Origin: Nocardioides anomalus
Lineage (GTDB): Bacteria; Actinomycetota; Actinomycetes; Propionibacteriales; Nocardioidaceae
Assembly: GCF_011046535.1 (NCBI RefSeq)
Contig: NZ_CP049257.1
Location: 4,030,001 to 4,094,000 of the forward strand
Direction of reading: 5' to 3'
DNA length: 64,000 nucleotides
Shown one piece after another: positions 3,389-16,139 of this stretch. Positions within the stretch are counted from its first letter, which is position 1; the number at the start of each line of letters is the position of its first letter. The notes under the pieces were generated by a model. It was not told where the DNA came from and did no database searches. It saw nothing but the letters and a program-made list of their open reading frames with translations. The position numbers and the translations under genes were made by a program.

Positions 3389-3730
3389 TCAGTGAGCCGA
3401 CTCGTACGCCTCACGCACGTCGGCCGGGATCCGACCACGCTCCGGCACGTCGTGGCCGTTCTCGCGCGCCCACTCGCGGATCTCCCTGGCGCTGGCGCCG
3501 CCGTTGCCGTTGGCGGCGGGGGTGCTCGAGCGGCGACCGCCGCCGCGACGACTGCCGCTCACCTTGCGCGCGTGGCCGACGTACGTCGCGAGCGCGTCAC
3601 GCATCTTGGCGGCGTTGTCGTCGTTGAGGTCGATCTCGTAGCTCGTGCCGTCGAGCGCGAAGGAGACAGTCTCGGTGGCCTCCGAGCCGTCGATGTCGTC
3701 TTCGAGGACGATGTGCACTTTCTGCGCCAT
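3389..3730 (-). CDS. lsr2: Lsr2-family nucleoid-associated protein
   Basis: A 113-residue DNA-bridging protein, the actinobacterial counterpart of H-NS, which silences AT-rich and horizontally acquired DNA. The N-terminal dimerisation domain starts MAQKVHIVLEDD and includes the typical 'YEIDLNDDNAAKMRDAL'. A basic, Gly/Ser-rich linker follows (about 60-75). The C-terminal DNA-binding domain has the family's REIREWARENGHDVPERGRI region, including the RGR AT-hook-like motif that enters the minor groove. The ATG at 3730 is preferred over an upstream in-frame start because it matches the family N-terminus and follows an AAAAGAGAA ribosome-binding site. The upstream region is unusually AT-rich, so autoregulation is plausible. 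Confidence 0.95.
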   Translation of the reverse strand: MAQKVHIVLEDDIDGSEATETVSFALDGTSYEIDLNDDNAAKMRDALATYVGHARKVSGSRRGGGRRSSTPAANGNGGASAREIREWARENGHDVPERGRIPADVREAYESAH

Positions 3731-3779
3731 GTGAATTCTCTTTTCTCGCTGACACGGTCCCCCGAATTCGAACGCCGAC

Positions 3780-3809
3780 AATATGGCACACCACTTTTGG
3801 GCACACCAA
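3780..3809 (-). promoter_or_regulatory. candidate lsr2 promoter
   Basis: On the minus strand, TTGGTG (3804-3809) and CATATT (3780-3785) form a -35/-10 pair with an 18-nt spacer. The predicted start site lies about 40 nt before the lsr2 ATG. The spacer contains the 9-bp direct repeat listed separately. Confidence 0.45.
3785..3808. repeat. 9-bp direct repeat across the lsr2 promoter spacer
   Basis: GGCACACCA occurs perfectly at 3785-3793 and 3800-3808, giving a 15-bp start-to-start period. It overlaps the candidate -35 and spacer and could be a regulator site. Confidence 0.55.
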
Positions 3810-3844
3810 TCGAAATGCCGAATTGCCGGGACTTCCTGACGCTC

Positions 3845-3860
3845 ATAATTGGCAAATTAT
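3845..3860. repeat. AT-rich inverted repeat upstream of lsr2
   Basis: ATAATT-GGCA-AATTAT is a perfect inverted repeat within an AT-rich island (about 3775-3865) in otherwise very GC-rich DNA. It may be a binding site for Lsr2 or another regulator. Confidence 0.5.
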
Positions 3861-3943
3861 TTGTCCAGCAAACACTGCTGCATCGACCTCGACGCGTCGC
3901 CCAGTGTGGTCGGGGCCTCCACCTAGCCGTCGGGGGCGTGGCG

Positions 3944-4672
3944 TCAGGTGCCCACCATGGCGGCGCGTCGGCCACCGACCGGCCGGAGAAGCCGACGCTC
4001 GACCGGGCCCTCGAAGGCGGTGTGCGGCACCCAGGGCGCGAGCACCGCCACCGCGGCACACAAGCACATCCAGCCCATCCGGGCGGGGCGAGGTGGTCAG
4101 TGCACACCCAGATCTCTTCCACCCCGTCAGCAGCGGTGCGCGCAAGAGGTACAGCGCGTAGGACCAGCCGCCGAGTGCGACCAGTGGACGCAGCCCGACC
4201 GGGCTCGACGCCCTCGCCGCAGGTCGGTCCCCCCGCGGCCACGATCAGGTAGGCCAGAGGTGGGAGCTCGACGAAGTCCGAGAACAGCTCGGTCTGGCGG
4301 AACGGCAACAGCGGCCCGTCCCATTGCAGGAGTGCTGCTCGGCAACCCAGTAGGCGGCGACGACGCAGGCCACGGCCCGCAGTGCGACCGTGCGGAACGC
4401 CGCCACCACAGCACGAGGGTTCCGGACCGCCAGAACCAGGCGAGCACGAACCCGGAGAGCACGACGAAGAAGCCGACGGCGGTGTAGCCGAAGTACACGA
4501 AGCCCGCCCCGTCGAGGCTCGGCCTGCCGGTCAAGGGACACCACGAGTGGAAGACGAGCGCGACGGTCGCGGCGAAGAACCGCAGCGCGGCCCGCGAGTC
4601 GAGCCCTGGGCGATGACGAGCCCAAGGCGACCGCCTCGCCCGCCGGGCGCCTCGCACGACGCCCCGGTGCAC
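3944..4672 (-). pseudogene. broken acyltransferase-3 (OafA/YrhL-type) gene
   Basis: Remains of a membrane O-acyltransferase can be read only by changing frame. The 5' part (frame of the ATG at 4672) carries the family N-terminus 'LDSRAALRFFAATVALVFH' and 'FGYTAVGFFVVLSGFVLAW'. A further stretch in the frame ending at 3559, 'LFSDFVELPPLAYLIVAAGG', looks like a later transmembrane segment. The last part, in another frame, gives a hydrophobic helix and 'PHTAFEGPVERRLLRPVGG', the typical cytoplasmic C-terminus, ending in TGA at 3944-3946. The remnant spans about 730 bp against more than 1,000 bp for an intact gene, so there is internal loss as well as frameshifts. An intact paralogue lies at 24544. 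The assignment is by motif reading; the exact breakpoints are uncertain. Confidence 0.7.
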
Positions 4673-4799
4673 CCTGCTGACCTGGCGCCCGGTCGGGCTG
4701 GATACCGCGGGGAAACGAGCAGCGGCCGCGCCCGAACTGCGAACCGCCGCGACGCGGGAGCGGCCGCTCGCCGATAGCGGCGCAAGGCCGCCGCGTTGT

Positions 4800-4805
4800 T
4801 AAGGT
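4800..4805 (+). promoter_or_regulatory. leaderless -10 element of the heptose glycan operon
   Basis: TAAGGT fits TANNNT and ends 7 nt before the GTG at 4813, the geometry of actinobacterial leaderless promoters. The overlapping AAGGTGAGG could alternatively act as a Shine-Dalgarno sequence; both readings support GTG 4813 as start. Confidence 0.5.
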
Positions 4806-4812
4806 GAGGCGC

Positions 4813-6132
4813 GTGCCGGACGTGCTCGAATCCCTGACGCCCGTGGGCACCGAGGTTCCCGCCGGTCTCGAGGCCGCCTGTGCGGTGCCCGGGGTCCGCG
4901 CGTTCACCTCCCCCACCGACCCCGAGGTGACCCTCCTCGTCCCTGCCGACGACGAGCCGGACCCCGAGGTCACCATCCTCATCCCCGCCGTCAACGAGCG
5001 GATCACGATGGAGGAGTTCGTGCAGTGGTGCCACCGGGGGCTGCGCGAGGCTGGGGTGAAGGGCGAGATCCTCATCGTCGACGCCTCGAGTGACGAGACT
5101 CCCGAGATCGCGCTGCGCGGGGGCGCCCGCGTGCTGCACACGCCGCTGCGCGGCCTGGGTCGGGCCTACATCGACTCGATCCCCTACGTGCGCGGCCGGT
5201 ACGTCGTGATGGGCGATGCGGACTGCACCTACGACTTCCGCAACCTGAAGCCGTTCGTGGACGCGATGCGCGGCGGGGCCGAGTACGCCATGGGCTCGCG
5301 CTGGAAGGGGACCATCGAGAAGGGCGCGATGCCGCCCCTGCACCAGTACTTCGGCACGCCGCTCACGACCTGGATCCTCAACCGGCTCTACGGCAGCCAC
5401 TTCAGCGACATCCACTGCGGGATGCGCGGCATCACCCGCGAGGCGCTGGTCCGGATGGGCATCGTCTCCCAGTCGTGGGAGTACGCCTCGGAGATGGTGC
5501 TCAAGTCCGTGCGGATGGAACTGAAGACCACCGAGGTCCCGGTCACCTTCCTCAAGGACCAGGAGGGGCGCCTCTCCCACCACAAGCGGTCCGGCTGGTT
5601 CTCGCCGTTCGCAGCGGCCTGGATCAACCTGCGCGCGATGTTCATCCACGGCGCCGAGTTCTTCCTCTTCAAGCCCGGCATCGTGCTCACGGTGCTCGGC
5701 CTGCTGCTGACGCTGCCGCTCTCCTTCGGCGACATCACCGTCGCGGGCGTGACCTTCAGCCTGCTGACCATGCTGGTCGGCGTCGCGCTGACCGTGATCG
5801 GGCTGCAGAGCATCTACTTCGGCGGCCTCGCGCACATGTTCCTCGACTACGGCGGACGACTGCGCGAACGCTGGCGCCGCATCTTCACCTACACCAAGAT
5901 GATGGTGATCAGCGGCAGCCTCTTCACGCTCGGCCTTGTGCTCGACGTGGTGCTGCTCGCGACCTTCATCAGCAACGACGCGTCGTTGCCCGACCCGTCG
6001 GCGACCGTGCCGCACCTCGGGGTGCTCGGTCTCATGCTCATGATCGTCGGCTTCTCGACGTTCTGCTTCACCCTCCTGCTCCACGCCACCAGCGTCAGCT
6101 ACGGCCCCGCCGCCGCCCGCCGCAGTGAGTGA
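4813..6132 (+). CDS. polyprenyl-phosphate sugar synthase-like GT2 glycosyltransferase with C-terminal membrane domain
   Basis: A 439-residue protein and first gene of the glycan operon. The catalytic domain (about 45-270) is a GT-A fold of the dolichyl-phosphate-mannose synthase/GtrB group: 'VTILIPAVNE' at its start, nucleotide-binding 'ILIVDASSDETPE', and the acidic metal-binding 'VMGDADCTYDF'. 'FSDIHCGMRGI' is also typical of this group. About four transmembrane helices follow (roughly residues 280-430). Such enzymes load a sugar from a nucleotide donor onto a polyprenyl phosphate for use outside the membrane. GTG at 4813 is chosen over an in-frame GTG at 4804 because of the promoter/SD geometry. 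The next gene overlaps its stop by 8 nt. Confidence 0.9.
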   Translation: MPDVLESLTPVGTEVPAGLEAACAVPGVRAFTSPTDPEVTLLVPADDEPDPEVTILIPAVNERITMEEFVQWCHRGLREAGVKGEILIVDASSDETPEIALRGGARVLHTPLRGLGRAYIDSIPYVRGRYVVMGDADCTYDFRNLKPFVDAMRGGAEYAMGSRWKGTIEKGAMPPLHQYFGTPLTTWILNRLYGSHFSDIHCGMRGITREALVRMGIVSQSWEYASEMVLKSVRMELKTTEVPVTFLKDQEGRLSHHKRSGWFSPFAAAWINLRAMFIHGAEFFLFKPGIVLTVLGLLLTLPLSFGDITVAGVTFSLLTMLVGVALTVIGLQSIYFGGLAHMFLDYGGRLRERWRRIFTYTKMMVISGSLFTLGLVLDVVLLATFISNDASLPDPSATVPHLGVLGLMLMIVGFSTFCFTLLLHATSVSYGPAAARRSE

Positions 6133-6760
6133 GCCCGTCGCGGGCCGCTCCAGCTCCTTCGGTGAGAGCGGCGACGTCACGGCGGTCGACCGGTTCGGGG
6201 TCTGGCTGTCCAAGCGCCAGATCGAGAAGGTCGTCGGCCCGCTGACGGGCAAGGACGTCGGCGACATCGGGTGCGGGTACGACGCGACCTTCATGCGCAA
6301 CGTGCTCGGCCAGGTCCGGACGGCCACGCTCATCGACGTCTCGCTGGCACCCGACCTGAGCCAGCACCCGAAGGTGCGCGCCGTCGAGGGCTACCTGCCC
6401 GAGGCCATGGAGCAGGTCCCCGACGCCTCCCTCGACGTCGTGCTCTGCATGTCGGTCGTCGAGCACCTCTGGGAGCCCGAGCAGACCCTCGCCCACTTCC
6501 GTCGCGTCCTGCGTCCCGGTGGCGTGTGCGCCGTGAACGTCCCCTCCTGGTGGGGCAAGCGCGCGCTGGAGTACTCCGCGTTCCGGCTCGGGACCTCGCC
6601 GGCGGAGGAGATGGACGACCACAAGATGTACTACGACCCGCGCGACCTGTGGCCCCTGATGGTGAAGGCCGGCTTCTGGCCCCACGCCATCAAGTGCTTC
6701 CGGCACAAGTTCGGCCTCAACACGTTCGCGGTCGCCACCGTCACCGAGCAGCACGTCTAG
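6125..6760 (+). CDS. class I SAM-dependent methyltransferase
   Basis: A 211-residue protein with a Rossmann methyltransferase core. Motif I is 'VGDIGCGYDATF' (about residues 40-51). Then come an acidic strand end 'LIDVSLAPDL' and 'VVLCMSVVEHLWEPEQTL', the Methyltransf_11 post-II motif, followed by 'HFRRVLRPGGVCAVNVPSW'. The GTG start overlaps the previous gene by 8 nt, so the two are translationally coupled. Its place between the lead glycosyltransferase and the isomerase suggests methylation of a sugar, lipid carrier or glycan end, but the substrate cannot be read from the sequence. Confidence 0.85.
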   Translation: MSEPVAGRSSSFGESGDVTAVDRFGVWLSKRQIEKVVGPLTGKDVGDIGCGYDATFMRNVLGQVRTATLIDVSLAPDLSQHPKVRAVEGYLPEAMEQVPDASLDVVLCMSVVEHLWEPEQTLAHFRRVLRPGGVCAVNVPSWWGKRALEYSAFRLGTSPAEEMDDHKMYYDPRDLWPLMVKAGFWPHAIKCFRHKFGLNTFAVATVTEQHV

Positions 6761-6769
6761 GAGTTCCGC

Positions 6770-7366
6770 ATGTCCTTCACCGACGACTTCCTCAAGGAGA
6801 CCGTCGCCATCGTCCAGTCCCTCGACAGCGACAGCGTGGAGGCGCTGGCCGAGGGGATCGCCGCGGTCCGCGAGCGTGAGGGTCGGCTCTTCATCCTGGG
6901 CGTCGGCGGCTCGGCCGGATCGGCCAGCCACGCCGTCAACGACTTCCGCAAGATCTGCAACGTCGAGTCCTACTCCCCCATCGACAACGTCTCCGAGCTG
7001 ACCGCCCGGGCGAACGACGAGGGCTGGGACACCACGTTCAGCGAGTGGCTCAGGGGCTCGCGGATCGGTGACCGCGACGCCGTCCTGGTCTTCTCGGTCG
7101 GCGGCGGCAACCGCGAGAAGCAGGTCTCGACCAACATCGTGGCGGCCCTCGACACCGCCAAGGCGGCCGGCGCCTCGGTCTTCGGCATCGTCGGCCGCGA
7201 CGGCGGCTACACCGCCCAGCTCGCCGACGCCTGCGTCGTCGTGCCGCCGACCTACGCTCCCCACATCACCCCGCACACCGAGGGTCTGTGCTGCGTGATC
7301 TGGCACCTGCTGGTCAGCCACCCGGCGCTCGCCGTGGCCGCGACAAAGTGGGAGTCCGTCGTATGA
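6770..7366 (+). CDS. SIS-domain sugar isomerase, sedoheptulose-7-phosphate isomerase-like (GmhA-like)
   Basis: A 198-residue SIS (phosphosugar isomerase) protein of the size of GmhA, which converts sedoheptulose 7-phosphate to glycero-manno-heptose 7-phosphate. The phosphate-binding loop is 'GVGGSAGSASHAVNDF' (about residues 44-59), and a second SIS motif is 'VLVFSVGGGNREKQV'. The ATG follows TAGGAGTT at good spacing. By eye, the Glu and His that serve as the acid/base pair in E. coli GmhA are not at the expected places ('VNDF' and 'TEGLCCVIWH'). The substrate may therefore differ, or the chemistry may use other residues. Neighbouring gmhB-, hddA- and hddC-like genes strongly suggest a heptose pathway. 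Confidence 0.8.
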   Translation: MSFTDDFLKETVAIVQSLDSDSVEALAEGIAAVREREGRLFILGVGGSAGSASHAVNDFRKICNVESYSPIDNVSELTARANDEGWDTTFSEWLRGSRIGDRDAVLVFSVGGGNREKQVSTNIVAALDTAKAAGASVFGIVGRDGGYTAQLADACVVVPPTYAPHITPHTEGLCCVIWHLLVSHPALAVAATKWESVV

Positions 7367-8361
7367 GCGACGGCAGCGAGCGCCTGCGCCGCGTCTGCGT
7401 CGTCGGCGGCGCGGGCTTCATCGGCAGCCACTTCGTGAAGCGGCTGCTGTCCGACGAGGCCACCGAGCAGGTCACCGTCTACGACAACTTCTCGTCCGGT
7501 CGCGACTGGCACCTCGAGCCGGTCAAGGACGATCCGCGGCTGAGCGTGGTCCGCGCCGAGGTGGGCGACCTGCCCGCGCTCACCGACGCGTTCCGCGGCC
7601 ACACCGCCGCCATCCACCTGGCCTCGAACCCCGACATCGCGGCCGCGGTGGCCAACCCGGCCATCGACTTCGACCAGGGCACACTGCTCACCCACCACGT
7701 GGCCGAGGCGGCCCGGATGGCCGAGGTCCAGCTGGTGCTCTACGCCTCCGGATCGGGCGTGTACGGCGACCTCGGGGAGGTCGAGGCCACCGAGGACCAC
7801 GGTCCGATGGTCCCGACCTCGACGTACGGCGCGAGCAAGCTGTCCGGCGAGGCGATCCTGGCGGCGTACGCGGCGATGTTCGACTTCACCGTCCGCGCCT
7901 TCCGGTTCGGCAACGTCGTGGGGCCGAGCCAGACCCACGGCGTCGGGTTCGACTTCGTGCGCCGCCTGCTCGACGACCCGACGAGGCTGCGGATCCTGGG
8001 CGACGGACGCCAGAGCAAGTCCTACATCTACGTCGAGGACGTCATCGACGCGGTGCTGCTCGCCGGCTCGCTGGCCGACACGCCTTTCGACGCGTTCAAC
8101 GTCGCGACCGGCGACTACGTGACGGTCACCGAGATCGCCGAGCTGGCCATGCAGGTGGTCGGGCTCGAGCCGGGCTCGACGACCTTCGAGTACACCGGTG
8201 GCGACCGCGGCTGGAAGGGCGACGTCCCCGTCGTCCGGATCGGCACCGACAAGGTCCGCTCGCTCGGCTGGGGCAACCGCCGCACCGGCCCCGAGGCGCT
8301 GCGCGACTCGATGACCGCGATGCTCGACCAGGCCCGGGCGGGGCTCCTCGACGGGAAGTGA
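7363..8361 (+). CDS. NAD-dependent epimerase/dehydratase (extended SDR)
   Basis: A 332-residue extended short-chain dehydrogenase acting on nucleotide sugars. The NAD-binding motif is 'VVGGAGFIGSHFVKRL' near the N-terminus. The catalytic Ser/Thr and Tyr-x3-Lys lie in 'STYGASKLSGE' (about residue 150), and 'SKSYIYVEDVIDAVLL' is the typical substrate-side segment. ATG 7363 overlaps the isomerase stop as ATGA; an earlier in-frame start would lie inside the isomerase gene. In this operon it could epimerise or dehydrate the activated heptose, but the family also contains UDP-glucose 4-epimerases and dTDP-glucose dehydratases. The reaction is not assigned. Confidence 0.87.
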   Translation: MSDGSERLRRVCVVGGAGFIGSHFVKRLLSDEATEQVTVYDNFSSGRDWHLEPVKDDPRLSVVRAEVGDLPALTDAFRGHTAAIHLASNPDIAAAVANPAIDFDQGTLLTHHVAEAARMAEVQLVLYASGSGVYGDLGEVEATEDHGPMVPTSTYGASKLSGEAILAAYAAMFDFTVRAFRFGNVVGPSQTHGVGFDFVRRLLDDPTRLRILGDGRQSKSYIYVEDVIDAVLLAGSLADTPFDAFNVATGDYVTVTEIAELAMQVVGLEPGSTTFEYTGGDRGWKGDVPVVRIGTDKVRSLGWGNRRTGPEALRDSMTAMLDQARAGLLDGK

Positions 8362-8915
8362 CGGCGGCGGTGGGCCGCCCGGCCGTCTTCCTGGACCGTG
8401 ACGGCGTCCTCAACCGCGCCTTCGAGCGGGACGGGGTGCCCGTGCCGCCGCGGACCCTCGACGAGTTCGAGGTGCTGCCCGGCGTGGCCGAGGCGTGCGC
8501 GGCCTTCCGCGCAGCCGGCCTCCTCCTCGTGGTGGTCACCAACCAGCCCGACCTCGCCCGCGGCACCCTGGACCCGACCCTGCTGCAGGCCTTCCACGAC
8601 AAGCTCCGCGCGGAGGTCCCGGTGGACGACATCGTCGTCTGCCCGCACAGCGGCCACGAGGGCTGCTGGTGCCGCAAACCGCGCCCCGGGATGATCCTCG
8701 ACGCCGCGCGGCGCCACGGCGTCGACCTCGACCGGAGCGTGGCGGCCGGCGACCGGTGGCGCGATGTCGACGCGGCCCACCGGGCCGGCGTGTCCTCGGT
8801 CTGGATCGACTGGGGACTCGGGGAACCGCTCCGAGACGCGCCGGGCGCGCGTTTTGGCTCGCTCGCGCAGGCACGGGAGTATGTCTTGGAGGTCTGCGGC
8901 GCCCCACGCGCCTGA
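8358..8915 (+). CDS. gmhB: D-glycero-D-manno-heptose-1,7-bisphosphate 7-phosphatase (HAD-IIIA)
   Basis: A 185-residue HAD-family phosphatase that would remove the 7-phosphate from heptose 1,7-bisphosphate. The nucleophile motif is 'FLDRDGVLNRAF' (residues 10-21), with both catalytic Asp residues. Motif II is 'VVVTNQPD'. The GmhB zinc-binding loop is clear in 'CPHSGHEGCWCRKPRPGM' (Cys, His, Cys, Cys). Motifs III/IV are the Lys in 'CRKPRPGM' and 'AAGDRWRDVDAA'. Length fits E. coli GmhB. The related histidinol-phosphatase shares this fold and loop, but the neighbouring heptose kinase and nucleotidyltransferase genes favour GmhB. GTG 8358 overlaps the SDR stop as GTGA. Confidence 0.88.
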   Translation: MTAAVGRPAVFLDRDGVLNRAFERDGVPVPPRTLDEFEVLPGVAEACAAFRAAGLLLVVVTNQPDLARGTLDPTLLQAFHDKLRAEVPVDDIVVCPHSGHEGCWCRKPRPGMILDAARRHGVDLDRSVAAGDRWRDVDAAHRAGVSSVWIDWGLGEPLRDAPGARFGSLAQAREYVLEVCGAPRA

Positions 8916-8950
8916 CCTCCAGCACGGCACATGACGGACTTGGAGCCCCA

Positions 8951-9643
8951 GTGAAGATCTACGCAGACGGCGCTGACCTCGAGAGCATCATCGCCTTGGC
9001 GCAGGACCCCCGCATCTCCGGGTTCACCACGAACCCGACGCTGATGCGCAAGGCCGGGGTCGACGACTACGAGGCGTTCGCACGCAAGGTGCTCGAGACG
9101 ATCACGACGCACCCGATCTCCTTCGAGGTCTTCGCCGACCAGCCGGCCGAGATGGTGCGCCAGGCCCGACTCATCGCCTCGTGGGGCGAGAACGTCTACG
9201 TCAAGGTGCCGATCACCAACACCCAGGGTGTCCCGAGCGACGACGTCGTCCGGGAGCTCTCGCAGGACGGCGTGCACCTCAACGTGACTGCGCTGATGAC
9301 GGTCGCGCAGGTCGAGGCCGTGGCTCGGGCCTCCGAGGGCGGTCCGGGGCACGTGGTCTCGGTCTTCGCCGGCCGGATCGCCGACACCGGCCGCGACCCG
9401 ATGCCGATCATGGCGGAGGCCCTCGAGGTGCTCCGCCCCCAGCCCGAGCTCGAGCTGCTCTGGGCCAGCCCCCGCGAGGTCCTCAACGTCCGGCAGGCCG
9501 AGCAGGTCGGCGTGCACATCATCACCGCCACCCCGGACCTGATCGGCAAGATGGCCTCCTTCGACAAGGACCTCGACCAGTTCTCGCTCGAGACCGTCCG
9601 CATGTTCCACGACGACGCCGCCGCCGCCGGCTTCACGCTGTGA
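8951..9643 (+). CDS. small transaldolase / fructose-6-phosphate aldolase-family protein
   Basis: A 230-residue class I aldolase of the TalC/MipB/FSA type, a single TIM barrel. The Schiff-base lysine is in 'VYVKVPITNTQG' (about residue 83). The family's early 'FTTNPTLMRKAG' and late 'ASPREVLNV' and 'ADTGRDP' segments are present. GTG at 8951 follows a TTGGAG site. Placed inside a heptose operon, it may supply sedoheptulose 7-phosphate by transaldolase chemistry, giving the isomerase a dedicated substrate source. Aldolase activity on other sugars is possible. The overlap with the next gene (GTGA) supports co-expression. Confidence 0.87.
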   Translation: MKIYADGADLESIIALAQDPRISGFTTNPTLMRKAGVDDYEAFARKVLETITTHPISFEVFADQPAEMVRQARLIASWGENVYVKVPITNTQGVPSDDVVRELSQDGVHLNVTALMTVAQVEAVARASEGGPGHVVSVFAGRIADTGRDPMPIMAEALEVLRPQPELELLWASPREVLNVRQAEQVGVHIITATPDLIGKMASFDKDLDQFSLETVRMFHDDAAAAGFTL

Positions 9644-10449
9644 GCGACGCGGCCCCGGTCCGCCTCAACGCCGACGGGACTGACCAGGACGACTGGGACG
9701 ACCACTGGGACAAGTACGGCGAGGCCGCGAAGGGCAACCCGGCCAACGACTACCGCCACGCCATGATCCTCAAGCTGCTCGGCCCGCTCCCGAAGGGTGC
9801 AGTGGTCCTCGACATCGGCAGCGGGCAGGGCCAGTTCGGCGTCGACCTCCAGGAGGCCAACCCGCAGGCGTCGGTCTTCGGCGTCGAGTACAGCGCCGAG
9901 GGCGTGCGCCGCGCCAACCAGGCGGCTGAGCGGGCCGGCGTCCCGGCGTACTTCTACGAGCGCAACCTGCTCGAGCCGGTCACCCGCGACGAGCGGCAGC
10001 CCCCGGCCACCCACGCGGTGTGCTCGGAGGTGCTCGAGCACGTCGACGACCCGACCACGCTGATGCGCGAGGCGCGTGCCCTGCTGGCCCCCGGCGCCAA
10101 GGTCGTGGTCACCGTCCCCGGCGGCCCGCGCTCGGCGTTCGACAAGCACATCGGCCACTGGCGCCACTTCACCGCGCCGCTGCTCCAGACCGTGCTCACC
10201 GACGCCGGCTTCGACGTGGACCGGGTCCTGCGCACGGGCTTCCCGTTCTTCAACCTCTACAAGCTCGCGGTCATCGCGCGTGGCCAGAAGCTCGTCGACG
10301 ACATGGAGCACCGCTCCCCCGGCACCGAGCCGTCGGGACTGGAGAAGGCGGTCACCGGCTTCTTCGCCAAGGCCTTCCCCCGCAACCGCGACGACGCGCG
10401 GCTCGGCTGGCAGCTCGCCGCCGTCGCGCACGTCCCACTGGTGGGCTGA
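9640..10449 (+). CDS. class I SAM-dependent methyltransferase
   Basis: A 269-residue methyltransferase. Motif I is 'VVLDIGSGQGQFGVDL' (about residues 52-67), followed by 'VFGVEYSAEGVRRA' and 'HAVCSEVLEHVDDPTTLM'. 'GAKVVVTVPGGPRSAFDKH' and 'HWRHFTAPLL' are typical of glycan-cluster Methyltransf_11/23 proteins. The acidic N-terminal 30 residues (DGTDQDDWDDHW) precede the fold. The GTG start overlaps the transaldolase stop as GTGA. The substrate is unknown; a methylated heptose or a terminal sugar would suit the context. Confidence 0.85.
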   Translation: MSDAAPVRLNADGTDQDDWDDHWDKYGEAAKGNPANDYRHAMILKLLGPLPKGAVVLDIGSGQGQFGVDLQEANPQASVFGVEYSAEGVRRANQAAERAGVPAYFYERNLLEPVTRDERQPPATHAVCSEVLEHVDDPTTLMREARALLAPGAKVVVTVPGGPRSAFDKHIGHWRHFTAPLLQTVLTDAGFDVDRVLRTGFPFFNLYKLAVIARGQKLVDDMEHRSPGTEPSGLEKAVTGFFAKAFPRNRDDARLGWQLAAVAHVPLVG

Positions 10450-10454
10450 GCGTC

Positions 10455-11435
10455 GTGCTCATCACCCGGACCCCCCTGCGGATCACGCTCGGCGGCGGTG
10501 GCACCGACCTGCCGTCGTACTACGAGGAGCACGGCGGCATGGTCGTCTCCGCGGCCATCACCAAGCACATCTACATCTCGGTCAACCGCACGTTCACCGA
10601 CGACTACTTCCTCAAGTACAGCCAGCTCGAGAGGGTGGACGAGCCCGGGCAGATCGAGCACCCGATCGTGCGCGAGGTCCTCAAGGCCCACGACATCGGG
10701 CCCAGCGTGGAGATCGTCTCGACCGCCGACATCCCGTCGGGGACCGGGCTCGGCTCCTCCGGCTCGTTCACCGTGGGGCTGCTCAAGGCGGTCCACGCGA
10801 TGCAGCGCAACCACGTCTCGGCCTCCGACCTCGGCCGCGAGGCCTGCGAGATCGAGATCGACCGGCTCGGCCGCACCGTCGGCAAGCAGGACCAGTACAT
10901 CGCCTCCTTCGGCGGCATCACCCGCTTCGACTTCAACCCTGACGGCTCGGTGGACGTCGCCCCGGCGCGCCTGTCCAGCGACACGGTGCACGACCTCGAG
11001 CAGCACCTGCTGATGTTCTTCACCGGCTACTCCCGCGCCGCCGACGAGGTGCTGGCCGAGCAGGTGGTGAAGTCGCAGCAGCGCGACCAGTCGATGATCG
11101 ACAACCTGCACTTCGTCAAGGACCTCGGACTGCGCCAGCTGGACGCCCTGGAGAGGGACGACGTGTCGGGCTTCGCGGAGCTGATGCACGAGCACTGGCT
11201 GAACAAGAAGAAGCGCTCGAGCTCGATGTCGAACCCGCGCATCGACCACCTGTACGACCTCGGTCGCGACGCCGGCGCGCGGGGCGGCAAGCTCGTGGGC
11301 GCAGGCGCCGGCGGCTTCCTGATGTTCTACGCCGAGGACACCCGCCGGGTGCGCGCGGCGATGCGCGAGGAGGGGTTGAGCGAACTCCGGTTCGGCATCG
11401 ACCCCGCGGGCAGCACCATGCTCGTGCGCGAGTAG
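10455..11435 (+). CDS. hddA: GHMP-family sugar kinase, D-glycero-alpha-D-manno-heptose-7-phosphate kinase-like
   Basis: A 326-residue GHMP kinase. The N-terminus 'TPLRITLGGGGTDLPSYY' is characteristic of HddA and related 7-phosphate/L-fucose kinases. The ATP-binding GHMP motif is 'IPSGTGLGSSGSF' (about residues 94-106). The C-terminal 'GGKLVGAGAGGFLMFY' is the third GHMP motif. HddA phosphorylates C1 of heptose 7-phosphate to give the alpha-1,7-bisphosphate, the substrate of GmhB two genes upstream. GTG at 10455 places the family N-terminus correctly. Adjacent gmhB- and hddC-like genes support the assignment; without them a fucose/galactose-type kinase would be possible. Confidence 0.87.
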   Translation: MLITRTPLRITLGGGGTDLPSYYEEHGGMVVSAAITKHIYISVNRTFTDDYFLKYSQLERVDEPGQIEHPIVREVLKAHDIGPSVEIVSTADIPSGTGLGSSGSFTVGLLKAVHAMQRNHVSASDLGREACEIEIDRLGRTVGKQDQYIASFGGITRFDFNPDGSVDVAPARLSSDTVHDLEQHLLMFFTGYSRAADEVLAEQVVKSQQRDQSMIDNLHFVKDLGLRQLDALERDDVSGFAELMHEHWLNKKKRSSSMSNPRIDHLYDLGRDAGARGGKLVGAGAGGFLMFYAEDTRRVRAAMREEGLSELRFGIDPAGSTMLVRE

Positions 11436-11446
11436 CCGGCCTCATC

Positions 11447-12154
11447 GTGCAGTGCATCATCCTGGCCGGCGGGCTCGGCACTCGTATGTGGCCGGTCGCC
11501 AAGACCATCCCGAAGACGTTGCTCCCCGTGGCCGGCCGGCCGTTCGCCGACTGGCAACTGGAGTGGCTGAGCGCCGCCGGTGTCGACTCGGTCGTCTACT
11601 GCGTCGGCTACCTCGGTGACCAGGTCCGCGAGCACGTCGGTGACGGTTCTGCGCACGGCCTGACGGTGACGTACGTCGACGAGGGCCGCGATCTGCGCGG
11701 CACGGGCGGTGCGCTGCGGCTGGCCCACGACGAAGGCGCCCTGGAGGCACGCTTCCTCGTTCTCTACGGCGACTCCTGGCTCCAGGTCGACCCCGCGGCG
11801 GTGCACGCAGCCCACGAGGCTTCCGGGCTGCCCGCGCTGATGACGGTCTACGAGAACGACGGCCGGTTCGACACCAGCAATGTCGAGTACGCCGAGGGCC
11901 GGGTCGTGCGCTACGAGAAGGGGCTCGAAAGCGTCCCGGCGTCGATGCGCTGGATCGACTACGGCCTGTCGGTGTTCGAGCGGAGCCTCATCGAAGAGCG
12001 GATCCCGGCCGACACGGCCTTCGACCTCTCAAGTCTGTGCCATGCGCTGTCATTGGAAGGGGCACTGTCGGGCTACCTGGTGTCAGACCGCTTCTACGAG
12101 ATCGGATCCCCTTCCGGGCTGGCCGAGGTCACCATGTTGCTCGCGCAGCGGTGA
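11447..12154 (+). CDS. hddC: sugar-1-phosphate nucleotidyltransferase, heptose-1-phosphate type
   Basis: A 235-residue NTP-transferase. The activating motif is 'IILAGGLGTRMWPVAKTIPK' near the N-terminus with the signature G-G-x-G-T-R and the downstream Lys. 'FLVLYGDSWLQVDP' carries the metal-binding Asp and 'DRFYEIGSPSGLAE' the substrate-side loop. The length matches short GDP-heptose pyrophosphorylases (HddC) rather than RmlA or ManC. It would convert heptose 1-phosphate to an NDP-heptose, completing the pathway. The base used (GTP or other) cannot be read by eye. Confidence 0.85.
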   Translation: MQCIILAGGLGTRMWPVAKTIPKTLLPVAGRPFADWQLEWLSAAGVDSVVYCVGYLGDQVREHVGDGSAHGLTVTYVDEGRDLRGTGGALRLAHDEGALEARFLVLYGDSWLQVDPAAVHAAHEASGLPALMTVYENDGRFDTSNVEYAEGRVVRYEKGLESVPASMRWIDYGLSVFERSLIEERIPADTAFDLSSLCHALSLEGALSGYLVSDRFYEIGSPSGLAEVTMLLAQR

Positions 12155-13407
12155 GCGGCTCGAGGCGCGGGGCAGCGATCCCGCTCCTCGCCGGCCTGGT
12201 CACTCAGGCGGGGACCACCTACCTGGTGCTGGTGCTCGCCGGGCGCTCACTCGGGCCAGCCGGGTTCGGCGCGCTTTCGAGCCTCTACCTCTTGGTCACG
12301 AGCGTGGCCACGGGGCTCTTCACCCCGCTCGAACAGGAGGTGACACGCCGTCGAGGCGTAGAACGATCACGCCACACGTGGGATCGTTCCCTCACCCGAC
12401 GGGCGCTGGGTCACGGGCAAGCCGCCGCCGGAGCCGCGCTCGTCCTGGCGCTCGCGGCGTACCCCCTGACGGTCCGAGTCCTGGGCGATCAGGACTGGCT
12501 CGTCGTGTCGCTGTGCCTCGCGCTACCCGGGTACGCCGCATGGTTCGAGGTCCGTGGAGAGCTTGCAGGTCAAGGGCACCTGCGACGTTACGGCACTCAG
12601 CTGGTCGTGGACGGAGCGAGCCGTATGGTCGGCGCGCTGGCGCTCGTGCTGACCGGAGGAGAGTCTGTGGCGACATTCGGACTGCTCTTCGGGCTGTCGC
12701 CTTGGATCACCTTGCTCCTGACCCTTCCGGGTTGGCGCCTCGCACCTGAGCAACGAAGAGCCGGGCCCGCCGACCCGCTGGCGCGGCCACTCGCGCTGCT
12801 GGTGCTGAGTGCGCTCGCCTCTCAGTTGCTCATCAACGCCGGACCCCTCGTGGTCAACCTGTTGGCGACCGACGACGAGCGGGACCTTGCGGGCGTGTAC
12901 CTCGCAGTCCTCGTGGTCGTGCGCATCCCGGTGTTCCTCTTCAGCGCGGTGCAGCCCGGATACTTGCGCTCCTTGGCGGAATACGTCGGCGGTGGCGACC
13001 GCCAGGCGTTCGACGAGCTGGTACGGCGCGTCCTGATGACCGTCGCCGGCGTCAGCGCAGCGGTCTGCCTGGCTTCGACGGCTCTGGCCCCGCCGCTCGT
13101 GAGCTGGGTGTTCGGCTTCGACCAGAGGCTCGACCGCGCCACCTGTCTCCTGCTCACCCTCGCCGTCGGGCTCTTTCTCGTCGCCGTGGTCCTCGCCCAA
13201 GCTCTCCTCGCTCTGGGACACCACGTCTGGGTCACCACCGGCTGGCTGCTGGGACTCGCCGGACTCGCCCTCGGTGCGGCACCCGACACGGGAGTCGTCA
13301 CCAGGGCGACACTCGCCCTGCTGGCAGGTGCCGCAGTCGCCACCGCGAGCCTGGCCTTGCTGCTGCGGCGCGAACGCGCCCAGTGGGCCATGATTGGCCC
13401 GTCATGA
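12151..13407 (+). CDS. polysaccharide flippase-like membrane protein (Wzx/MATE fold)
   Basis: A 418-residue integral membrane protein with about 12 predicted helices. It starts 'RRGAAIPLLAGLVTQAGTTY', followed by 'GRSLGPAGFGALSSLY', the typical first two helices of Wzx-type flippases ('LGPxxFG'). A basic loop around residues 65-80 (VTRRRGVERSRH) would be cytoplasmic. Members flip lipid-linked oligosaccharide across the membrane. GTG 12151 overlaps the preceding stop as GTGA, and the next gene starts within its last codons, so it belongs to the heptose operon. Sequence identity in this family is low, so the call rests on topology and context. Confidence 0.78.
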   Translation: MSGSRRGAAIPLLAGLVTQAGTTYLVLVLAGRSLGPAGFGALSSLYLLVTSVATGLFTPLEQEVTRRRGVERSRHTWDRSLTRRALGHGQAAAGAALVLALAAYPLTVRVLGDQDWLVVSLCLALPGYAAWFEVRGELAGQGHLRRYGTQLVVDGASRMVGALALVLTGGESVATFGLLFGLSPWITLLLTLPGWRLAPEQRRAGPADPLARPLALLVLSALASQLLINAGPLVVNLLATDDERDLAGVYLAVLVVVRIPVFLFSAVQPGYLRSLAEYVGGGDRQAFDELVRRVLMTVAGVSAAVCLASTALAPPLVSWVFGFDQRLDRATCLLLTLAVGLFLVAVVLAQALLALGHHVWVTTGWLLGLAGLALGAAPDTGVVTRATLALLAGAAVATASLALLLRRERAQWAMIGPS

Positions 13408-15359
13408 GCGCGACGACGACCGGACGCGGGGAAGCCCCTCCCTCGGGTCCGGTCCCCCAGGCACCTGCCCGCGACTTCCTCAGCGCACCTGTGTACGCCG
13501 GGCTGGCCGCGCTCTGTGGGCTCCTGACGTTGCTCCTCGTGTGGCTGACCCAACGCCGCTACTCGCAGTTCTTCGCCGACGACTTCGTCTACCTGCAGCT
13601 CGCTCGTGACGGCGAGCTGACCCCGTCCTGGCTAGTCAGGGACAACTACGGACACTTCGCGCCGCTCACACGTCTCGCGTACTTCGCGGTCCAGCGCACC
13701 GTTGGCCTTGACTACCCCGTCGCCGCGCTGCTTCCAGCCGTCGTGGTCAGCGGCATCTTCTTGGCGCAGGCGTGGCTTCACCGTGAGTTGATCGGCCGCC
13801 GCCCGCTGGCGCTTCTCGTCGCCCTGGCCGGCACCGCCTCGGTGCCAGTGCTGAAAACCGTGCTCTGGTGGGGCGCCGCGGTGCACGTGCTCGGAGCAGC
13901 CTTCCTGATGACGCTCTGCACCGCTGCCTTCGTCGTCTACTGCCAGCACCGTCGCGAGTGGCAGCGCGCGGTGTCAGTGCTCGCTCTTGTCGCTGCATTG
14001 CTGGTGCAGGAGCGGCCAATCCTGACCATCGGCTACCTCGTGCTCATCCGCTACCTGTTTGGTCTCGGCTTCGCGCGTCGACCTGGTTGGCTGACACGTG
14101 AGGCTCGGCTGTGGGCGCCCTACGTCGTGGTGGAACTCGTCTACCTCGTGTACCGCGCCTTCATCTTCAACTCCTCTCCTGAGCCCGGTAGCGTCGGCGG
14201 GACGGTACGGCTGGTCTGGGAGAGCGTCTGGCGCGGCTATCTCCCCACACTGGTGGGCTCACGCACCTCGGCCGCGGACCCGTTGATCACGCTGCAGGCG
14301 GTGGTCGGCCTCGCCGCGTTGGTGGCTGCCACGGCCCTTCTCGGACGTCTTCGCCGGGGCGTGTGGCGCGTGGTGGCGTTTCTCGTGGCCATCTACGCCG
14401 CCAACCTTGCGATCGTGGCGGCTGGCCGGCTCGATGTCTCGAGCATTGCTGTGATCGTGGTGGACCTGCAGTACTACGTCGACGTGCACATCGGTTCGTT
14501 GCTTGCCTTCGCTCTGGGTTACGCGACGCTGCCCGAGCGGGAGAGGTCCCCGCGCGACGGACGCCGGACATGGCTCGTGCTGGCGTCGTTGGCCTCGACG
14601 GCCGTGGCCCTCTCGACGCTGGTCACGCTGCACGACGTCTCTGAGCACAACCAGACGACGCCAGCGCACTCGTACGTCACCGCGGTCACTCGCCAGCTCG
14701 AGGCGCGTCCCGGTCCCTACGACCTGCTCCGCACCAAGCTGCCCGTTGACATAGCGCCAACGTTCATCGAGCCTTTCACCGCTGTGTCCGACGTCTTCGC
14801 CTTGGACCCCGACGTCTCCGCGAGGCTGGATCCGACGGCCGACGAGCGGCTGCTGGTGACGTCGACGGGCCGACTCGTCAGGGCTCACCCGACGACCCTG
14901 GCCAACATCCCGCTGAACGCCGGGACCGTCGAGGCGCGCGTCGGCACGGTGGTCGACTCGGCCGACGGTGCGTGCCTGAGCGGCCCGGCGGGATCCAACG
15001 TCCTCATCACCCTGCCCAAGCGGCTCGCGTCGGACAGCTTGTTCTACGCGCTGACCTACAGCAGTGCGAGCGACCGAGCGGTCCGACCCGTCATGCTCGG
15101 CCCTGATCCGCAGTACAACCAGGTCCTGAGCCCTCTACCCGCCGGAGACGACGTCACCGTGGTGGACCGACTTGACGGTCGCAGAGCCCGGAGCATCGTT
15201 CTCGGGTTCGAGTCACCCCTGCGGAACCTCTGCCTGCAGAGGTTGTCCATCGGACGGCTGTCGGCCGTAGTCGGGGGACGCTGCCGCGTGGTGACGGTCT
15301 ACGGGAAGCCCTCGAGGGCATCCTCGGACTGCGACGCCAGCTGGCCCGTCGTCGACTAG
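13404..15359 (+). CDS. large GT-C-like membrane protein, paralogue of the protein at 21015-22889
   Basis: A 651-residue protein with about ten to eleven transmembrane helices in the first 400 residues and a soluble, probably extracytoplasmic C-terminal domain of about 230 residues. After the first helix comes 'FFADDFVYLQLARDG', an acidic pair in the first loop as in GT-C glycosyltransferases that use polyprenyl-phosphate sugars. 'YGHFAPLTRLAYF' and 'LKTVLWWGAAVHVLGAAF' follow. The same ordered motifs occur in the minus-strand protein at 21015. A GT-C glycosyltransferase using the product of the lead gene is my inference; the family is not named from the sequence. ATG 13404 overlaps the flippase stop as ATGA. 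It is the last gene of the operon. Confidence 0.7.
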   Translation: MSATTTGRGEAPPSGPVPQAPARDFLSAPVYAGLAALCGLLTLLLVWLTQRRYSQFFADDFVYLQLARDGELTPSWLVRDNYGHFAPLTRLAYFAVQRTVGLDYPVAALLPAVVVSGIFLAQAWLHRELIGRRPLALLVALAGTASVPVLKTVLWWGAAVHVLGAAFLMTLCTAAFVVYCQHRREWQRAVSVLALVAALLVQERPILTIGYLVLIRYLFGLGFARRPGWLTREARLWAPYVVVELVYLVYRAFIFNSSPEPGSVGGTVRLVWESVWRGYLPTLVGSRTSAADPLITLQAVVGLAALVAATALLGRLRRGVWRVVAFLVAIYAANLAIVAAGRLDVSSIAVIVVDLQYYVDVHIGSLLAFALGYATLPERERSPRDGRRTWLVLASLASTAVALSTLVTLHDVSEHNQTTPAHSYVTAVTRQLEARPGPYDLLRTKLPVDIAPTFIEPFTAVSDVFALDPDVSARLDPTADERLLVTSTGRLVRAHPTTLANIPLNAGTVEARVGTVVDSADGACLSGPAGSNVLITLPKRLASDSLFYALTYSSASDRAVRPVMLGPDPQYNQVLSPLPAGDDVTVVDRLDGRRARSIVLGFESPLRNLCLQRLSIGRLSAVVGGRCRVVTVYGKPSRASSDCDASWPVVD

Positions 15360-15365
15360 GCCCGA

Positions 15366-16139
15366 TCACCCGTTGCGTTCGAACACCAGCCTCAGGCCCC
15401 GCAACGTCAGCCACGGGTCCCGCTCGGTGAAGCAGGCGCACTCGTCGACGACCAGGCCGGCGAGATAGCCGGTCGCGATCACGGTGACCTCGGCGCGATC
15501 CGCTCCGAGCTCGGCGAGCATGCGCCCGACCAGGCCGTCGACCTGGGCGGCGACACCGAAGATCAGGCCGGACTGGAGCGCCTCGACGGTGTTTTTGGCG
15601 ATGGCGGTGCGGGGGCGGACGAGCTCGACCTCGCGGAGCTGGGCGCCGCGGCGGCCGAGAGCCTCGAGGGAGATCTCGATGCCGGGGGCGATGGCGCCGC
15701 CGACGTACTGGCCCTTGGCGTTGACGACGTCGAAGGTGGTGGCGGTGCCGCCGAAGTCGACGACGACGGCGGGGCCGCCGTAGAGGGTGGCGGCGGCGAG
15801 GGCGTTGACGATGCGGTCCGAGCCGACCTCGCGGGGATTGTCGGTGAGGACGGGGATGCCGGTGCGGACGCCGGGCTCGACCACGACCGCGGTCACGTCG
15901 GCGAGGTGGCGGGTGAGCATCTCGCGCCACTCGAGGAGGACGGCGGGGACGGTGGAGCAGACGGCGACGCCGTCGAGGCCGGTGAGGCGGTCGCCGAGGA
16001 GGCCGCGGAGCAGGGCGGCCCACTCGTCGGCGGAGCGGCGCACGTCGGTCGACACGCGCCAGTCGGCGACGACCTCGCCGTCCTCGAGCAGGCCGAGGAC
16101 GGTGTGGCTGTTGCCGATGTCGGCGGCGAGGAGGGGCAC
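15366..16139 (-). CDS. coaX: type III pantothenate kinase
   Basis: A 257-residue enzyme that phosphorylates pantothenate, the first step to coenzyme A. The ASKHA-fold phosphate motif is 'AADIGNSHTVLGL' at the N-terminus. The pantothenate-side motif is 'TDNPREVGSDRIVNALAA' (about residues 117-134), and the second nucleotide motif is 'VVDFGGTATTFDVV'. Length matches CoaX. It starts at GTG two bases after the nadC stop, so it is the last gene of the pan-nad operon and directly uses its pantothenate product. Its 3' end converges with the glycan operon only 6 nt away, with no clear terminator between. Confidence 0.95.
   Translation of the reverse strand: MPLLAADIGNSHTVLGLLEDGEVVADWRVSTDVRRSADEWAALLRGLLGDRLTGLDGVAVCSTVPAVLLEWREMLTRHLADVTAVVVEPGVRTGIPVLTDNPREVGSDRIVNALAAATLYGGPAVVVDFGGTATTFDVVNAKGQYVGGAIAPGIEISLEALGRRGAQLREVELVRPRTAIAKNTVEALQSGLIFGVAAQVDGLVGRMLAELGADRAEVTVIATGYLAGLVVDECACFTERDPWLTLRGLRLVFERNG

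What the first reader, a model, noticed from the sequence alone, without database searches (positions are those of the whole stretch)
6770..12154. Heptose-nucleotide pathway with an embedded transaldolase in an actinobacterial glycan operon
The operon holds a SIS isomerase, GmhB, HddA and HddC homologues, enough to turn sedoheptulose 7-phosphate into an NDP-heptose. M. tuberculosis has a comparable gmhA-gmhB-hddA group (Rv0113-Rv0115). Here a small TalC-type transaldolase with its Schiff-base Lys (VKVPIT) and an SDR epimerase are interleaved with GTGA/ATGA overlaps. A private transaldolase inside the cassette suggests local supply of sedoheptulose 7-phosphate, or use of a different aldol-derived sugar. 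The lead polyprenyl glycosyltransferase, flippase and GT-C-like protein would then build the sugar into a surface glycan.
Basis: partly seen in the sequence, partly recalled or inferred. Interest (0 to 1): 0.75.

Follow-up and report, generated by a model that had tools for sequence, protein, structure and literature searches.

The report
Octose-type sugar cassette in glycan operon
A soil actinobacterium carries an inserted set of sugar genes that looks like a heptose pathway but fits better, enzyme by enzyme, the eight-carbon sugar pathway known from the antibiotic lincomycin, and related sets in many other bacteria suggest that such sugars may be built into surface glycans.

Summary
The genes are real: a tight + strand operon (4804-15359) in a Nocardioides-like genome, inserted between lsr2 and coaX. 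The heptose reading is only partly supported. None of 16 heptose-type (hddA) loci matched the transaldolase queries, whereas this isomerase type has a transaldolase nearby in nearly every locus examined. The only characterised pathway known to me with this enzyme set is the lincosamide GDP-octose pathway. The window has counterparts of LmbR, N, P, K, O and M; many relatives also have those of LmbZ and LmbL; a cluster recognised as lmb by gene order holds all eight. The SIS protein shares with LmbN an enlarged loop (12 residues; GmhA 6) and Asp/Glu where GmhA has Glu/Gln. Searched from the SIS side, the enlarged loop went with a nearby transaldolase in 7 of 7 informative cases, the short loop in 0 of 2. 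Best explanation (about 0.57): an NDP-octose is made from F6P or S7P plus ribose 5-phosphate, methylated, lipid-linked and built into a surface glycan. Main rival: a heptose fed by private sedoheptulose 7-phosphate. The transaldolase, kinase and nucleotidyltransferase do not by themselves favour octose, and no enzyme here has been assayed.

The parts
4804..6132 (+). GT2 glycosyltransferase, likely polyprenyl-phosphate sugar transferase with C-terminal membrane part
   Evidence: PF00535 62 bits; AglJ model 124 of 325 bits, below cut-off
   Evidence: PF08241 47.9 bits
6770..7366 (+). SIS isomerase, LmbN-like: H54, D58, E171, H179 and enlarged loop S109-S120
   Evidence: PF13580 29.9 bits, gmhA 57 of 209 bits; alignment
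7363..8361 (+). SDR epimerase, LmbM-like (42% identical to the SDR of the lmb-type cluster of G828)
   Evidence: PF01370 140.7 bits
8358..8915 (+). HAD-IIIA phosphatase, GmhB/LmbK-like
   Evidence: TIGR01656 129 bits over cut-off, GmhB model 121 of 178; 49% to the HAD of G828
8951..9643 (+). small transaldolase, GTG start, K85, E59, F139
   Evidence: TIGR02134 310 of 282 bits
   Evidence: PF13489 65.1 bits
10455..11435 (+). GHMP kinase, HddA/LmbP-like
   Evidence: HddA model 165 of 600 bits; solved heptose kinases 3k85, 4n3o
11447..12154 (+). sugar-1-phosphate nucleotidyltransferase, HddC/LmbO-like
   Evidence: PF00483 67.7 bits; HddC model 67 of 300 bits
   Evidence: no Pfam or NCBIfam match; hydrophobic
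   Evidence: no Pfam match; a 42% relative lies beside the same cassette in G954
3782..15368 (.). insertion between lsr2 (3392-3781, -) and coaX (15369-16139, -)
   Evidence: Pfam Lsr2 and Pan_kinase; neighbouring genes in 20 of 20 fetched genus genomes

Best explanation
The operon makes a nucleotide-activated octose and builds it into a surface glycan. Inferred steps: the transaldolase moves a dihydroxyacetone unit from fructose 6-P (or sedoheptulose 7-P) onto ribose 5-P, giving octulose 8-P; the LmbN-like SIS enzyme turns it into an aldo-octose 8-P; the GHMP kinase phosphorylates C1; the HAD phosphatase removes the 8-phosphate; the nucleotidyltransferase makes NDP-octose (GDP by analogy with LmbO); the LmbM-like SDR epimerises it; the methyltransferases O-methylate; the GT2 protein loads it on polyprenyl phosphate; the two membrane proteins export and transfer it. 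Shown here: presence, order and conservation of the genes, the match to the lmb set, the shared SIS features. Every substrate assignment is inference.
For: (1) A cluster with the lmb gene order (G828) and a second one (G647) hold homologues of TAL, SIS, kinase, HAD, NTP and SDR of the window, and of the MocA and UGDH proteins of related loci; LmbR makes octulose from ribose 5-P, and LmbN, LmbK, LmbO have proven C8 functions (passages of PMC5854111 and PMC4351081). (2) SIS features: Asp58 in 62 of 63, Glu171 in 61 of 63, 12-residue loop in 61 of 63 cassette proteins; LmbN Asp 2 of 2, Glu 2 of 2, loop 12 and 15; GmhA Glu 20 of 20, Gln 20 of 20, loop 6 in 20 of 20. (3) No match to two transaldolase queries in 16 of 16 heptose-type loci. 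(4) Searched from the SIS side, 7 of 7 informative long-loop cases have a transaldolase nearby, 0 of 2 short-loop ones. (5) The transaldolases beside long-loop SIS proteins are of several types (107-181 bits in five genomes against at least 358 in the cassette type), as if the activity is what is kept. (6) The genome has another full-length transaldolase, so this one is not needed for general metabolism. (7) LmbK and LmbM score nearer the cassette than HAD and SDR proteins of heptose loci.
Against: The transaldolase type (TIGR02134) is not specific: it stands alone on an S. aureus plasmid and beside other genes on a Streptomyces plasmid, with the same post-lysine length. LmbR has Gln and Leu where 80 of 80 cassette proteins and 18 of 18 TalC have Glu and Phe. 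LmbP (307, 316 bits) scores below kinases of heptose loci (340-391), and LmbO (147, 146) overlaps their NTPs (105-161). The SIS tree has three separate groups and no root, so it does not show LmbN as sister of the cassette; the transaldolase tree joins long branches. Two short-loop SIS proteins without transaldolase also have Asp and Glu, and score 94-95 bits, close to LmbN's 97 and 103. SIS identity to LmbN is only 31-34%. Seven of 48 loci with wide flanks have a transaldolase but no SIS found. The window lacks the LmbL and LmbZ counterparts.
Confidence: 0.57

Rival explanations
1. The operon makes an NDP-D-glycero-D-manno-heptose or its C2 epimer, and the transaldolase makes sedoheptulose 7-P on the spot from F6P and erythrose 4-P.
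For: Closest solved structures of the kinase are heptose 7-phosphate or 1-phosphate kinases and of the SIS protein phosphoheptose isomerases. In 6 of 80 loci a reversed HldE-like kinase/adenylyltransferase stands in for the GHMP kinase, never together with it, as expected for heptose chemistry. The cassette transaldolase keeps the ordinary transaldolase residues.
Against: 0 of 16 heptose-type loci matched the transaldolase queries; sedoheptulose 7-P is a common metabolite made by transketolase (established knowledge), so a private source is not needed; the SIS loop and ligands match LmbN, not GmhA.
Confidence: 0.25
2. The transaldolase uses yet another aldose phosphate (for example arabinose 5-P), so that the pathway makes a different long-chain sugar.
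For: Transaldolases of several types accompany the isomerase; products of the cassette have not been studied in any paper seen.
Against: No sequence evidence points to a particular other acceptor; the lmb set is the only characterised parallel known to me.
Confidence: 0.13
3. The transaldolase is a passenger gene with no part in the sugar pathway.
For: The family is found outside such cassettes.
Against: Linkage to SIS in 63 and HAD in 62 of 80 loci, in eleven named phyla; 7 of 7 in the SIS-side search; GTGA overlap with the next gene.
Confidence: 0.05

Closest known systems
Lincosamide GDP-octose pathway (LmbR, LmbN, LmbP, LmbK, LmbO, LmbM, LmbZ, LmbL; Ccb homologues)
   Same: Same families for transaldolase, SIS isomerase, GHMP kinase, HAD phosphatase, nucleotidyltransferase and SDR; shared SIS loop and Asp/Glu.
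   Different: In a glycan operon, with GT2, methyltransferases and membrane proteins; no LmbL, LmbZ or LmbS counterpart in the window; SIS without carrier domain; identities 31-49%; transaldolase keeps Glu/Phe.
GDP-D-glycero-D-manno-heptose pathway (GmhA, HddA, GmhB, HddC)
   Same: Related families at four steps.
   Different: Scores far below curated cut-offs, different SIS loop and ligands, extra transaldolase.
TIGR02134 transaldolase (Staphylococcus type)
   Same: Full-length match above cut-off; catalytic positions kept.
   Different: Here in an NDP-sugar operon, not alone (compare).

Membership tests
Lincosamide-type NDP-octose pathway | Homologues of LmbR, LmbN, LmbP, LmbK and LmbO together in one cluster | tested here: met
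Lincosamide-type NDP-octose pathway | SIS enzyme with LmbN features (enlarged loop, Asp/Glu) | tested here: met
   only two LmbN-type sequences at hand
Lincosamide-type NDP-octose pathway | Counterparts of LmbM, LmbL, LmbZ, LmbS for later steps | tested here: not met
   only the LmbM counterpart is in the window operon; these are tailoring steps, present in part in related loci
Lincosamide-type NDP-octose pathway | Kinase and nucleotidyltransferase nearer LmbP and LmbO than heptose enzymes | tested here: inconclusive
   LmbP scores below, LmbO overlaps heptose-locus proteins
Lincosamide-type NDP-octose pathway | Octulose 8-P and GDP-octose as products | not testable with these tools
   needs enzyme assays
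GmhA phosphoheptose isomerase | Curated score and GmhA residues (Glu, Gln) with short loop | tested here: not met
   57 of 209 bits; Asp58, Glu171, 12-residue loop. Caution: 1 of 119 genomes had a match over that cut-off, so the cut-off is strict
HddA heptose 7-phosphate kinase | Curated score | tested here: not met
   165 of 600 bits; 0 of 119 genomes reached it, so little weight
Transaldolase TIGR02134 | Score over cut-off, Schiff-base Lys, transaldolase-type Glu and Phe | tested here: met
   310 of 282 bits; roles of the residues recalled

The most novel reading that the evidence does not exclude
NDP-octoses are common, overlooked building blocks of bacterial surface glycans. Cassettes of this type in eleven or more phyla make them, many with UGDH-, MocA- and SDR-type enzymes that tailor the octose further, and the lincosamide antibiotics share this pathway by common descent with surface-glycan synthesis. 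The enlarged SIS loop marks the C8 branch and lets octose clusters be called from sequence.
Probability: 0.42. Interest if true: 0.85.

Novelty: new variant of a known kind. Interest (0 to 1): 0.66.

Why it matters
Genes of this set are easily read as heptose genes (phosphoheptose isomerase, HddA, GmhB). If the product is an octose, a large group of bacterial glycan clusters has been misread, the lincomycin sugar has relatives outside antibiotic clusters, and a simple sequence mark (SIS loop length plus a linked transaldolase) would separate C7 from C8 pathways. The prediction can be tested by sugar analysis and two enzyme assays.

Tried and rejected
Heptose by curated families: not enough either way, since the cut-offs are so strict that 1 of 119 (gmhA) and 0 of 119 (HddA) sampled genomes reach them. 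Post-lysine length of the transaldolase as an octose mark (17 in 80 of 80 cassette and 2 of 2 LmbR, 13 in 18 of 18 TalC): dropped, because the S. aureus and Streptomyces sp. 3211 proteins share it. Asp/Glu ligands alone as an octose mark: weakened by two short-loop SIS proteins without transaldolase (L196, L213). Trees: quick trees without bootstrap, on about half of the usable cassette rows (at most 28 per family); they show GmhA as a separate group but do not resolve whether LmbN and the cassette are sisters, the transaldolase tree joins long branches, and the kinase tree gives no clean C7/C8 split. Structure prediction of the SIS protein: tool switched off. Papers: in the listings I saw none that links this octose pathway to surface-glycan cassettes; one search matched 38,196 papers and listed 25, and the library lacks most subscription journals. 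One abstract there (PMC4753412, start seen in the listing) says that branched octoses occur in polysaccharides of several Gram-negative genera, so octoses in glycans are not new as such. The original LmbR/LmbN and LmbK/LmbO papers are not held; their content comes from passages of PMC4351081, PMC5854111 and PMC12945683. Rfam and tRNA scans of the window gave nothing.
Full report
What is there. The finding lies in a + strand operon of eleven genes, 4804-15359, in a 5.12 Mb single-contig genome whose close protein relatives are named Nocardioides where they are named. Starts were read from the junctions: GT2 4804, MT1 6125, SIS 6770, SDR 7363, HAD 8358, transaldolase 8951, MT2 9640, kinase 10455, NTP 11447, flippase-like 12151, GT-C-like 13404. 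No heptose-named model reaches its cut-off; the transaldolase passes TIGR02134 and the HAD protein two broader models.

Where it sits. Pfam places Lsr2 at 3392-3781 and a type III pantothenate kinase (CoaX) at 15369-16139, with a ClpC-like protein at 700-3273. Of 25 other genomes drawn from the genus, 24 have CoaX; I fetched the stretch beside it in 20 of these 24. In 20 of 20, CoaX, Lsr2 and ClpC follow each other. The Lsr2 match starts within 1.2 kb of the CoaX match start in 18 of 20; L218 (5.5 kb) and L230 (2.9 kb) are the exceptions. No cassette gene was found in these stretches at E 1e-8. In the window 11.6 kb separate lsr2 and coaX, so the operon is an insertion there. It is rare among relatives: the SIS profile matched 3 of 245 family genomes at E 1e-20, and the transaldolase profile gave over 300 bits in 2 of 394 class genomes, this one and G309.

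A cassette, not a chance cluster. Window proteins found relatives in these 80 loci as follows: SIS 63, HAD 62, SDR 54, NTP 53, kinase 48, GT2 20, MT1 16, MT2 15, flippase-like 3, GT-C-like 0. Transaldolase, SIS, HAD, kinase and NTP are all found in 34 of 80. Many contigs are short; of 48 loci with at least 4 kb on both sides, SIS is in 41, kinase or reversed HldE in 42, HAD in 36, Gfo/Idh/MocA in 30; L060, L071, L077, L097, L098, L104 and L106 have no SIS. The 63 loci with SIS and transaldolase fall in eleven named phyla, plus 3 loci without a phylum. A frequent order outside the window's own type is SDR-UGDH-SDR-MocA-kinase-NTP-SIS-HAD-transaldolase. The window's nine-gene order, GT2 to NTP, is in L029, L030 and L031 and in G954 at 60-86% identity; its contig has the length listed for Nocardioides pocheonensis proteins.

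Heptose or not. From the HddA-like kinase matches I fetched 16 loci (all but one of the 17 best outside this genome). Fourteen hold a GmhA or SIS relative in the stretch and 12 a HAD relative, and none matches the two transaldolase queries (0 of 16); some flanks are short (L185 is 7.6 kb). A weaker match of that list, G092, was fetched later and does have a transaldolase, together with a long-loop SIS protein. The window's genome has another full-length transaldolase and one match each to the gmhA and HddA models, the genes described here. So a private transaldolase is not a usual part of the heptose pathway.

The octose match. LmbR makes octulose from F6P or S7P and ribose 5-P (PMC5854111, passage). 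LmbN, LmbK, LmbO and LmbR are listed with proven C8 functions and LmbP, LmbM, LmbL and LmbZ with predicted ones (PMC4351081, passages); functions of LmbM, LmbL, CcbZ and CcbS were later reported (PMC12945683, passage). In 392 genomes of the genus of G023 (Streptomyces by inference), 5 had a transaldolase match at E 1e-10. The two best, G828 and G647, carry in one stretch HAD, UGDH-like, SDR, SIS, MocA, kinase, NTP and transaldolase in the lmb order K-L-M-N-Z-P-O-R, with room for lmbS before R; in G647 about 4.9 kb lie between MocA and kinase. Identities of window proteins to G828 are HAD 49, SDR 42, NTP 37, kinase 34, SIS 31, transaldolase 31%; the UGDH (36%) and MocA (40%) matches were made with proteins of related loci, since the window has neither.

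Sequence marks. In the SIS alignment cassette proteins have Asp58 in 62 of 63, Glu171 in 61 of 63 (one gap, L099; one Gln, L095) and a 12-residue S109-S120 stretch in 61 of 63 (one 10, one 6). L095 is GmhA-like throughout. The two LmbN domains have Asp, Glu and lengths 12 and 15. All 20 GmhA proteins have Glu, Gln and 6. That these are metal ligands and the phosphate loop is recalled knowledge of GmhA. In an unrooted tree GmhA, LmbN and cassette form three separate groups (GmhA branch 97); it does not say which two are sisters. With cassette-trained profiles, LmbN scores 97 and 103 against 31-63 for the 20 GmhA loci, but a short-loop SIS of a heptose-type locus (L196) reaches 95. LmbK (227, 217) exceeds HADs of heptose loci (129-175), LmbM (385, 395) their SDRs (20-184; one SDR near a TalC locus has 266), and LmbR (165, 217) TalC (110-133). 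LmbO (147, 146) overlaps heptose-locus NTPs (105-161), and LmbP (307, 316) lies below heptose-locus kinases (340-391).

Test from the SIS side. To avoid choosing loci by their transaldolase, I searched SIS profile A3 in 245 family and 386 phylum genomes. Hits: G000, G954, G901, G092, G1145, G1148, G1275 (two), G1195, G061. With the long segment (9-15 residues), G000, G954, G901, G092, G1145, G1148 and G1275:C18 have a transaldolase in the examined stretch, in G1145 about 10 kb away; G1275:C70 has none, but its contig ends shortly after the HAD gene. With the short segment, G1195 and G061 have none in 19.9 kb. In the five genomes other than G000 and G954 the transaldolases score only 107-181 against the cassette profile, and that of G092 has the shorter TalC-type post-lysine stretch. 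Different transaldolases beside the same isomerase type suggest that the activity is what is needed. The sample is small.

Against. The transaldolase type is not specific, and LmbR lacks the Glu and Phe that 80 of 80 cassette proteins keep. Kinase and NTP do not favour the Lmb side. Six of 80 loci have a reversed HldE-like protein and no GHMP kinase, 48 the reverse, none both. The reversed arrangement is described for CBU0678 of Coxiella, where the same paper lists a phosphoheptose isomerase (CBU0674) and a UDP-glucose 4-epimerase (CBU0676) (PMC5843353, passages); whether that isomerase is of this type was not tested. Branched octoses are already known in polysaccharides (PMC4753412, start of abstract). 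Every substrate claim rests on analogy.

Conclusion. On checking I lowered octose from 0.60 and raised heptose from 0.22, because the SIS tree does not show LmbN as sister of the cassette. I file it as a new variant of a known kind: the lincosamide-type octose set in a glycan operon.

Noticed in passing
L091:10074-11624; also L074, L094, L097, L098, L104: HldE-like protein with reversed domain order (adenylyltransferase first, kinase second) in place of the GHMP kinase; in L097, L098 and L104 no SIS gene was found in the stretch.
   Followed up: partly
L204 (G092:C21:25000-44900): Cassette with HAD, SDRs, MocA, kinase, NTP and long-loop SIS but a transaldolase of another type, as if displaced.
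   Followed up: partly
L140 (G647:C1:3034000-3053900) and L203 (G901:C18:1-14000): Two further clusters with weak matches to the whole set; G647 has about 4.9 kb of other genes between MocA and kinase. Possible unknown octose natural products.
   Followed up: no
L238 (NC_008014.1 14331-30918); plasmid hits H1, H2, H20, H21: SIS and transaldolase genes lie close together on large Rhizobium plasmids; a Lawsonia intracellularis plasmid has SIS, HAD, transaldolase, nucleotide sugar dehydrogenase, SDR, Gfo/Idh/MocA, 'galactokinase' and nucleotidyltransferase in a row.
   Followed up: partly
L237 (NZ_CP020040.1 356827-375516): A transaldolase 60% identical to the window's lies beside an arabinono-lactone oxidase, a hexitol phosphatase and an MFS transporter: another use of this family.
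   Followed up: no
window 3782-15368: The lsr2-coaX junction holds this insertion; L218 and L230 also have extra DNA between the two genes, of unknown content.
   Followed up: partly
L078:7269-8855, among the five loci of neighbour cluster 35: B12-binding radical SAM proteins recur near the cassette in a few loci and may modify the sugar or a lipid.
   Followed up: no
L196 (G061:C8) and L213 (G1195:C4): SIS proteins with Asp/Glu but a short loop and no transaldolase nearby; L196 has kinase, HAD and NTP, so it may be an intermediate or a further sugar pathway.
   Followed up: partly
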